Positions 23,526 to 31,974 of a stretch of DNA of 64,000 nt are shown piece after piece (within the stretch, counting starts at the first letter, position 1; each line of letters starts with the position of its first letter). The stretch is from Polyporus tsugae (lineage: Eukaryota; Basidiomycota; Agaricomycetes; Polyporales; Polyporaceae), in contig JAHRBS010000004.1 in the NCBI GenBank assembly GCA_024305745.1, positions 2,294,001 through 2,358,000 on the forward strand, given 5' to 3'. The position numbers and the translations under genes were made by a program. Below the pieces are notes generated by a model. It did no database searches, was not told the DNA's origin, and saw only the letters and a list, made by a program, of their open reading frames with translations.

Positions 23526-24868
23526 CTAGTACGGCACCTCGTCGAAGAGCTTCGACACGCTCTCGCCATAATGGCTTCGCCTAATCACCTCGGCAAGCAC
23601 ATTCCCGATGTCGATGACCTCGAGCTTGGAACACTTGGCGACATTTTCCGCCTGCGGCAGGGTGTTCGTCACGATCAGCTTCTCGAGCGCGGACTCGTCC
23701 ACGTTCTTCAGCGCGTTTCCGCTCAGGATGCCATGCGTCACCATCGCATACACCTTCGCGACCCCGGCCTCTGACAGATGTTGGGCGGCCAGACAGAGCG
23801 TGCCACAGGTGTCGGCCATGTCGTCCACGAGGATCGCGACCTTGTCCTTGACGTGACCGACAAGGATCATACGTGACACCTCGTTTGCCTTCTTGCGTTC
23901 CTTGTGGAACAGCGCGAAGTCGACACCCAGCCGATCAGCCATGGAGGTTGCACTATCGGGCGGACACGGGAGAGCCGTCAGCATTCCAATCTTGTCATTC
24001 CCGAATTGATCGCCACTGACCGTTTCGCACCGCCTGCATCGGGCGACACGATGACGACGTTGGGCAAATGGAAGTTTGTGCGGATGTACTGGATTGATGA
24101 CGGCTCCGCATAAAGCTGAGACAAACGCCGGTGTGAACGTCACTAGCACGGAAACAGGCGGCCGGCACTCACGCTACGGGGAGCCGGGGAAAATGTGAGC
24201 TCTCAGACGAAGCTGGCAAGAGCGACCAAACACCCACTTGTCTACGGGCACGTCGAAGAAGCCTTGTATTTGTGAGGCGTGGAGATCCATGGTCTGTTCG
24301 CGTTCCACGGATGCGGCCCAAAAATTGCCCGTCAGACAACTGGCCAAACGCCCATGAACGCAACACTCACGATGACATGGTCGCAGCCTGACTTTTGGAT
24401 CATATTCGCCACGAGTTTGGCGGTGATCGGAGCCCGACTCTTGTCCTTCTTGTCTTGGCGGGCATAAGGAAAGAGAGGGAGGATGGCGGTAATGCGCTTC
24501 GAGCTCGCGATTTTGCAGGCGTGGATCATAATGCAGACCTCCATGAGGGCCGTGTTGATCTCTCCGCACCCAGTGTTGATGATGTACACGTCGTCCTCGC
24601 GGACGGATTCGGCGATGCGGACGTGACTTTCCCCGACGCCGCTCTTGGTCACTTCCGCCCTTGCGAGAGGGACACCGAGTCTGGAAGCAGGGAACGTCAG
24701 ACGTTCGCTTCTAGGAATGTTGCAGCCGTGAATGTGCACCGTCTGGCGATGATCTCTGCTAGCTCAGGGTGGCTAGTGCCTGCGAGGGGAATTGAGGCGG
24801 AGAAAATAGGCGGTCTCGACAGAGGAAGACGCACCAGTGAAGATTTTGATACCGTTGCCAGTGAACAT
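23526..24868 (-). CDS. Ribose-phosphate pyrophosphokinase (PRPP synthetase), needs a 1-nt exon
   Basis: Makes PRPP from ribose 5-phosphate and ATP for nucleotide, His and Trp synthesis. Exons 24868-24835, 24779-24740, 24680-24371, 24293-24238, 24173 (single base), 24115-24021, 23952-23526 sum to 963 nt, 320 residues, against 318 in human PRPS1. Motifs: [51 protein letters not shown] with the flexible-loop region, [47 protein letters not shown] and the PRPP-binding loop [14 protein letters not shown]. The exon ending in VPVD-AA is in phase 2, while the next coding block begins LYAEPSS in phase 0. Only a one-base exon, a C flanked by TAG and GTGAGT, restores VDNLYAEP. See findings. Confidence 0.95.
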
Positions 24869-31216: not shown

Positions 31217-31974
31217 ATGGCCTTCTACACCAATTTCAATGTCAACCCCACCGATGCGCAAGTCACCAGCCTAACCGACAGTGTCGAGCCAACAACCAAG
31301 CTTTGCGTCTCGAGAGACAGGGGGATTTCGCAGGTGCGGAGCTCAAGCACCTCGAAGCCATTCGGGGCAAAGAGGCGGGCGTGGGCACAGACCATATCAC
31401 CACAGCGGTGTCTTACAATGGCCTGGGTGAGCTCTACCTCAAGATGGAACAGCTCGACAAAGCGGAGGTATACCTCAACAAGGCTTTGCGCGTGCGCGAG
31501 CACTTGGGTCCCGCGTCCGACCTCGCAATGACCCGCGACGACTTAGGGAGGCTGTTTGAGATGAAGGGCGAGTTGCAAACCGTCCAGGAGATCCGTTTGA
31601 AGGGCGCACCCGACAACATTGCCTGCGGCAACTTCAGCGTGAGTTCTTGCGTTTTCCTTACGTTTCCACAGATGCTCACCCTGATTTGTGTCTTCAGTGC
31701 TCGAAGCTCCAGAACTCTTTGAGTAACTTGTCCAAGTGTTCTGTGTGCAAGGTAAGCCCTTGACCATCTCATGCTGAGTGCCTGCAGATGCTCACTCGCG
31801 TTTCAGGCGGTGTTCTACTGTTCGCAATCCTGCCAGGTGAGTCTGCCCTTTGTTTAGTCCCCTTTGTTTGCAGGTTGCCGATTAACGCGAATGCAGCAAG
31901 CAGACTGGAAGCGGCACAAGAAGTATTGTCGTCGCACTGAGGGCGGCGTCAGCAAGGAGATTTCACCACTTTGA
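31217..31974 (+). CDS. TPR-MYND protein, tandem copy 1 (frameshift near the N-terminus)
   Basis: Exons 31217-31638, 31698-31751, 31807-31836, 31897-31974. The body carries TPR-like repeats (GDFAGAELKHLEAIRGKE, SYNGLGELYLKMEQLDKAE, LGRLFEMKGELQ) and ends in a MYND-type zinc finger: Cys pair, then KCSVCKAVFYCSQSCQ and DWKRHKKYC. MYND fingers bind short Pro-rich peptides. The start frame gives MAFYTNFNVNPTDAQVTSLT, clearly aligned with copy 2, but the TPR frame is entered only if one base is added near 31285-31290 (GAGCC instead of GAGGCC). Without it the product stops early. A 41-nt intron ending CCTAACCGACAG is an alternative. With one base added the length is 194 residues, close to copy 2. 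The base may be a sequencing error or a true mutation. Confidence 0.75.

What the first reader, a model, noticed from the sequence alone, without database searches (positions are those of the whole stretch)
24115..24238. Apparent one-nucleotide exon in the PRPP synthetase gene
On the minus strand the exon ending at 24238 stops in phase 2 after VPVD plus AA. The next clear coding block starts at 24115 in phase 0 with LYAEPSS. Between them the sequence reads GTGGGT...CCGTAG, one C (24173), then GTGAGT...TCTCAG. The two flanking introns would be 64 and 57 nt, both normal here. Including the single C gives VDNLYAEP, where the Asn is near-invariant in PRPP synthetases, and makes the whole gene 963 nt in frame and 320 residues. 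No GT-AG alternative keeps both the frame and this motif. One-base exons are extremely rare in any organism.
Basis: partly seen in the sequence, partly recalled or inferred. Interest (0 to 1): 0.92.

Follow-up and report, generated by a model that had tools for sequence, protein, structure and literature searches.

The report
One-letter exon in a mushroom gene
In a bracket-fungus gene for a core metabolic enzyme (PRPP synthetase), one lone DNA letter sits between two complete intron signals and is very likely spliced in as a whole exon; nearly all related gene models examined are garbled at the same site, so this tiny exon is probably ancient in mushrooms and widely misannotated.

Summary
On the minus strand the PRPP synthetase exons ending at 24238 and starting at 24115 are one nucleotide short of being in frame. 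Of all routes enumerated with up to two GT-AG introns, nested ones included, only one gives VDNLYAEP: removal of 24237-24174 and 24172-24116, keeping the single C at 24173.

Relatives support it strongly, at protein level. In capped hit lists, 4 of 109 genome-annotated homologues read a clean VDN at the site; 77 of 78 transcript-like ORFs do. Near-identical pairs differ essentially only there, e.g. VDN in a transcript-like ORF where the Fomes fomentarius model reads VDKW. The same trouble shows in 10 Agaricomycete orders and two Tremellomycetes. The paralogue in the same genome is uninterrupted and reads GAC AAC CTC.

Best reading: a real, deeply conserved 1-nt exon, with its two introns removed one after the other. 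The kind is known (plant APC11 and VPS55, Fusarium CYP621A); my searches list no basidiomycete or PRPP synthetase case. No RNA from this species and no relatives' DNA were available.

The parts
24173..24173 (-). Single-nucleotide exon (C), third base of the Asn147 codon AA|C
   Evidence: Only AG-N-GT in the 122-nt stretch; only enumerated route to VDNLYAEP
24174..24237 (-). Upstream flanking intron, 64 nt, GTGGGT..CCGTAG, phase 2; CTCAC branch-point-like motif, A 22 nt from the 3' end
24116..24172 (-). Downstream flanking intron, 57 nt, GTGAGT..TCTCAG, phase 0; TTCAC motif, A 18 nt from the 3' end
24835..24868 (-). PRPP synthetase exon 1 (ATG at 24868)
24740..24779 (-). PRPP synthetase exon 2
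24371..24680 (-). PRPP synthetase exon 3
24238..24293 (-). PRPP synthetase exon 4, ends in GAC AA (phase 2)
24021..24115 (-). PRPP synthetase exon after the 1-nt exon, starts CTT TAT GCG
23526..23952 (-). Last PRPP synthetase exon, with stop TAG
24116..24233 (-). Rival single 118-nt intron (donor GTGTTT) that would give VDKW-LYAEP
   Evidence: the reading of the Ganoderma leucocontextum model P0001

Best explanation
The C at 24173 is very likely a constitutive one-nucleotide exon of a PRPP synthetase gene, predicted to complete the codon of Asn147 when its two flanking GT-AG introns (64 and 57 nt) are removed. Inferred mechanism: each short intron would be recognised on its own across the intron; because the 3' splice site of the first and the 5' splice site of the second are one base apart, two spliceosomes could hardly sit there together, so the introns would be removed one after the other, like a recursive-splicing step that leaves one base behind. 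Inferred history: two intron positions one base apart have probably been kept since before Agaricomycetes and Tremellomycetes separated, because loss or shift of a single splice site would break the frame of a core metabolic enzyme.
For: Only enumerated GT-AG route to VDNLYAEP. An in-frame 320-aa protein that matches human PRPS1/2 (VDNLYAEP) along its length. The paralogue in the same genome has no intron at this site and reads GTC GAC AAC CTC TAC. Over 189 fungal or environmental homologues (190 less one fluke protein): VDN in 77 of 78 transcript-like ORFs, 2 of 2 with both kinds of source, 4 of 109 genome models. In the 85 genome models of the first two searches, insertions and deletions fall at residues 140-149 in 53, against 2 at the start and 1 each in two neighbouring bins. 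Near-identical pairs outside the site: P0094 with two Pleurotus ostreatus models 316/316, P0037 with two Postia/Rhodonia placenta models 316/316, P0044 with Suillus 316/316, P0056 with Leucocoprinus 316/316, P0006 (VDN) with Fomes fomentarius (VDKW) 315/316. The extra residue of all 41 VDK?L models is W, Y or C (20 of 20 in the first search, whose query read VDN), as expected if AA is followed by a donor GTGGGT, GTAYGT or GTGYGT and the caller shifts 4 nt to its internal GT; the window's donor is GTGGGT, matching W. Four models read VDN-VS, as expected for C followed by GTRAGT.
Against: No RNA from this species was examined. No DNA from relatives was available, so the 1-nt exon in them is inferred from proteins. 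The transcript-like status of lgn/jgi ORFs is inferred from source label and contig size (77 of 78 under 2 kb; P0066 6.3 kb), and their species are unknown. Hit lists were capped at 120 each. Splice-site scores are equivocal: in the 264-kb model the donor GTGGGT beat 69 of 151 and the acceptor CCGTAG 47 of 151, but in the window-only model of 23 both beat none and GTGGGT fell below the VDKW donor, as did two other donors of this gene. A bare AG-[CT]-GT arises in about a fifth of shuffles. 4 of 109 genome models already read VDN, which could be correct models or loss of one intron. One transcript-like ORF reads VDS (P0077).
Confidence: 0.92

Rival explanations
1. A single 118-nt GT-AG intron (24233-24116) is removed and the protein really reads VDKWLYAEP.
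For: Canonical ends and in frame; the annotated reading in Ganoderma leucocontextum, G. adspersum, Fomes and others. Its donor outscored GTGGGT in the small window-only splice model.
Against: 0 of 78 transcript-like ORFs read VDK, although one search was seeded with VDKW. P0006, 315/316 identical to the Fomes model outside the site, reads VDN. Donor GTGTTT was absent from 151 de novo introns (GTGGGT 3), a noisy set. The intron would be longer than the gene's other introns (55-77 nt). The paralogue and the human enzymes have no such insertion.
Confidence: 0.04
2. A non-canonical 121-nt intron (TG-AG or GT-CA, indistinguishable by sequence) is removed and the protein reads VDKLYAEP, 320 residues.
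For: 35 of 109 genome models read VDKL with unchanged length.
Against: Same-length transcript-like ORFs read N, including two identical outside the site to VDKL models (P0094 with P0107, P0037 with P0039). A spliced aligner that forces a transcript C onto the genomic G could produce this artefact (inference).
Confidence: 0.02
3. Assembly or sequencing error, or a decaying gene copy.
For: A single missing base would give the same phase clash.
Against: Models from many separately sequenced species are in trouble at the same site, and the rest of the gene is intact and conserved.
Confidence: 0.01
4. A stwintron (one intron nested in a splice site of another) rather than two introns flanking an exon.
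For: Stwintrons are known in ascomycete fungi (PMC5639578, abstract and outline seen).
Against: Nested routes with two GT-AG introns of 35-150 nt were enumerated; none yields VDNLYAEP, and those shown that keep frame give VDKW or the form without VD.
Confidence: 0.01

Closest known systems
1-nt exon of APC11 in Arabidopsis and other land plants (PMC4674806, parts 1-2 of 3 read; PMC8831610, passages)
   Same: One base between AG and GT, needed for frame, missing from annotations, conserved over a major clade; successive intron-defined splicing proposed there too.
   Different: Other gene, other kingdom; shown by cDNA and reporter mutants there, by sequence and relatives' proteins here.
1-nt exon of VPS55 in land plants (PMC8831610, passages)
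   Same: Well conserved single base with a GTRAGT donor; a duplicate gene lacks it, like the paralogue here.
   Different: In some lineages transcripts with and without it are both made; no alternative product was looked for or seen here.
1-nt exon of CYP621A in Fusarium (PMC12940212, parts 1-2 of 3 read)
   Same: Fungal nuclear gene, phase clash at a conserved motif, intronless relative as length marker, gene models wrong at the site with one exception.
   Different: Reported there for Fusarium orthologues, with the middle G of a Gly codon and RNA reads in support; here the C of an Asn codon in a core enzyme, probably over Agaricomycotina, without RNA of the species.
Stwintrons of ascomycete fungi (PMC5639578, abstract and outline)
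   Same: Two spliceosomal introns at one place, one inside the other's signal.
   Different: Nested routes do not give the conserved motif here.

Membership tests
Constitutive single-nucleotide exons | One base flanked directly by AG and GT of two complete introns | tested here: met
Constitutive single-nucleotide exons | Inclusion needed to keep frame and a conserved motif | tested here: met
   relatives
Constitutive single-nucleotide exons | Mature transcript of the same species contains the base | not testable with these tools
   No RNA of this species; 77 of 78 transcript-like ORFs of relatives read VDN
Constitutive single-nucleotide exons | Base change or deletion alters cDNA and frame (reporter test) | not testable with these tools
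   Done for APC11 in PMC4674806
Constitutive single-nucleotide exons | Orthologous genes in relatives carry AG-N-GT in their DNA | not testable with these tools
   No DNA of fungal relatives found; inferred from proteins
Stwintron | Internal intron interrupts a splice site of the external intron | tested here: not met
   No nested route gives VDNLYAEP
PRPP synthetase (ribose-phosphate pyrophosphokinase) | Full-length sequence similarity to characterised enzymes | tested here: met
   Human PRPS1/2, E about 1e-131, residues 6-319; Pfam labels PF13793, PF14572, PF00156 on homologues

The most novel reading that the evidence does not exclude
A one-nucleotide exon in PRPP synthetase that dates from before the Agaricomycetes-Tremellomycetes split, retained for several hundred million years (age recalled) in most mushroom-forming fungi and garbled in over 90% of their public gene models: the most widespread one-base exon known outside plants.
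Probability: 0.78. Interest if true: 0.78.

Novelty: new member of a known kind. Interest (0 to 1): 0.7.

Why it matters
If true it would be, as far as my searches of open papers show, the first one-base exon in a basidiomycete and in a core metabolic enzyme of this kind, and one kept over a subphylum. It makes an open question testable: how a spliceosome handles two splice sites one base apart, and in what order, in tractable mushrooms. It also points to a systematic annotation error: 105 of 109 genome models in my capped lists do not read a clean VDN at this motif; in the first list, whose query read VDN, 63 of 67.

Tried and rejected
DNA of relatives: a two-gap pattern for the exon-intron-C-intron-exon layout was scanned in genome contigs (5 matches) and viral contigs (5 matches). 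A motif scan of these 10 loci printed isolated short strings (such as GFFD or FAEPS) in 5 of them and no HASQI or DAGGAKR in any; I take them as chance matches.

Splice-site models: a first script found no candidates and stopped with an error. A window-only set of 23 introns and a 264-kb set of 151 are both noisy; 33 of the 151 donors have T at +5 and only 52 of 151 carry CTNAY. The larger set rates the four splice sites as ordinary; the smaller rates GTGGGT and CCGTAG below all 23, as it does two other donors of this gene. I treat this as inconclusive. U1 duplex energies do not tell which intron goes first.

Other routes: one search also lists GC-AG and AT-AC routes with long insertions and two with an acceptor at 24104; one search lists eight two-intron routes, one of which keeps the same C but starts at 24231 and reads VDKWV-LYAEP. 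None of these others gives VDN.

A fluke protein (P0149) was dropped from the counts. The sorting into transcript-like and genome models was done by hand from the tables.

Full report
The observation. Reading the minus strand, the PRPP synthetase gene has exons 24868-24835, 24779-24740, 24680-24371, 24293-24238, a single C at 24173, 24115-24021 and 23952-23526. Joined, they make 963 nt and 320 residues. The intron before the C is 64 nt (GTGGGT..CCGTAG), the one after it 57 nt (GTGAGT..TCTCAG). The gene's other introns are 55, 59, 77 and 68 nt.

Is it forced? Direct joining of 24238 to 24115 is one base short of frame. Two single GT-AG introns keep the frame and LYAEP: 24233-24116 gives VDKW-LYAEP, 24245-24116 removes VD. 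An enumeration of routes with up to two GT-AG introns of 35-150 nt between 24293 and 24021, nested routes included, gives 16 in-frame products that keep 24246 and 24115; exactly one contains VDNLYAEP, the two-intron route round the C at 24173, in either order. The C is the only AG-N-GT in the stretch. The context YAGCGTRAGT occurs 281 times in the 43.2-Mb genome on both strands, against 620 for the reversed pattern, and at a usable place in 10 of 20,000 shuffles; a bare AG-[CT]-GT does so in 4,233 of 20,000. So the motif alone is weak evidence, the full consensus stronger, and the main weight lies with the protein and the relatives.

What should the protein read? Human PRPS1 and PRPS2 read IPVDNLYAEP. 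The paralogue in the same genome (contig 7, near 749.9 kb, 66% identical over residues 23-183) is uninterrupted here and reads GTC GAC AAC CTC TAC, VDNLYSEP. It serves as a length marker, as the intronless CYP621B1 did in the Fusarium study (PMC12940212).

Relatives. Three protein searches, each listing the best 120 of several thousand, gave 190 distinct proteins. The first query read VDN, the second (P0100) VDKC, the third was a VDKW region chosen to look for support for the rival. I sorted the rows by hand: ORFs from lgn or jgi sources only as transcript-like (77 of 78 on contigs under 2 kb, P0066 on 6.3 kb), the rest as genome models, two with both kinds of source apart. The transcript-like label is an inference: an uninterrupted ORF of this length (most about 320 codons, some 199-301) on a 1-kb contig must come from spliced RNA or an intronless gene. 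One fluke protein was dropped. Transcript-like: 77 of 78 read VDN, one VDS. Both: 2 of 2 VDN. Genome models: 4 of 109 read a clean VDN; 35 VDKL, 16 VDKWL, 13 VDKYL, 12 VDKCL, 13 without VD, 16 other. In the first search: 50 of 51 and 4 of 67; in the first two: 60 of 61 and 4 of 85. These counts are not phylogenetically independent. Among those 85 models, insertions and deletions against the window protein fall at residues 140-149 in 53, at the start in 2, and in two neighbouring bins in 1 each; the 24 models added by the third search were not counted this way, and several of them differ in length elsewhere.

Matched pairs. Outside the site, P0094 is identical (316/316) to two Pleurotus ostreatus models, P0037 to two Postia/Rhodonia placenta models, P0044 to Suillus clintonianus, P0056 to Leucocoprinus leucothites; P0006 is 315/316 to Fomes fomentarius. 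The species of the transcript-like ORFs are not named; identity suggests, but does not prove, the same species. In each pair the transcript-like ORF reads VDN and the model something else: VDKL, VDKLTIGYLVSL, VDKC, VD lost, RGYYSL, VDKW. The last is the reading of the Ganoderma leucocontextum model, which is 99% identical to the window protein.

The errors decode the DNA (inference). A caller that must add one base modulo three can shift the donor 4 nt downstream to the GT inside GTNNGT. The added residue then spells the donor: GTGGGT gives W, GTAYGT gives Y, GTGYGT gives C. All 41 VDK?L models carry W, Y or C; 20 of 20 in the first search. Four models read VDN-VS, which is what C followed by GTRAGT encodes (P0063, P0083, P0084, P0101). 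I could not read the DNA of these species.

Breadth. Models with trouble at the site come from Polyporales, Russulales, Jaapiales, Amylocorticiales, Atheliales, Boletales, Agaricales, [14 protein letters not shown], Gloeophyllales and Sistotremastrales, one species looked up for each, and from the Tremellomycetes Cryptococcus depauperatus (VDKW) and Phaffia rhodozyma (VDKY). So the phase clash probably predates the split of the two classes.

Mechanism. Shown: sequence layout, uniqueness of the route, protein readings in relatives. Inferred: that this species splices it so; that the introns are removed one after the other under intron definition, as Guo and Liu proposed for APC11 (PMC4674806). 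The order is unknown. Splice-site scoring was equivocal.

Known cases. Searches of the held papers for single-nucleotide, one-nucleotide, 1-nt, 1-bp and single-base exon wordings, microexon with fungi and 1-nt, microexon with basidiomycete, micro-exon with Cryptococcus and microexon with PRPP synthetase wording point to nuclear 1-nt exons in plant APC11 and VPS55 and in Fusarium CYP621A, and to a mitochondrial one in placozoan cox1 (PMC5436844, listing only). Two papers on fungal mitochondrial introns use the wording too (PMC12308204, PMC8208691; listings only, not opened). The one microexon passage in the Cryptococcus neoformans transcriptome paper concerns an aligner setting (PMC3990503). 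I saw no basidiomycete nuclear case. Subscription papers and preprints were not searched.

Noticed in passing
31635-31644 (+): The same ten-base context CAGCGTGAGT occurs in what looks like a MYND-finger gene (recognised by eye), but there it reads as an ordinary donor after an AGC codon, followed by small exons.
   Followed up: partly
L017 (G000 contig 7, about 750480-749030, minus strand): A second PRPP synthetase gene with several introns but none at the VDN site; its later exons are less similar to the window gene (53-54%).
   Followed up: partly
P0002 and P0004; P0107 and P0143: Two Dichomitus squalens entries give different readings of the site (VDKL and VDKW), and two Pleurotus ostreatus entries likewise.
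   Followed up: partly
P0078: The Ganoderma boninense protein lacks the stretch of the whole exon upstream of the site (CDHVI joined to LYAEP), perhaps another way round the phase clash.
   Followed up: no
P0149: An Opisthorchis viverrini model holds a stretch of PRPP synthetase twice in tandem, perhaps a gene-model artefact.
   Followed up: no
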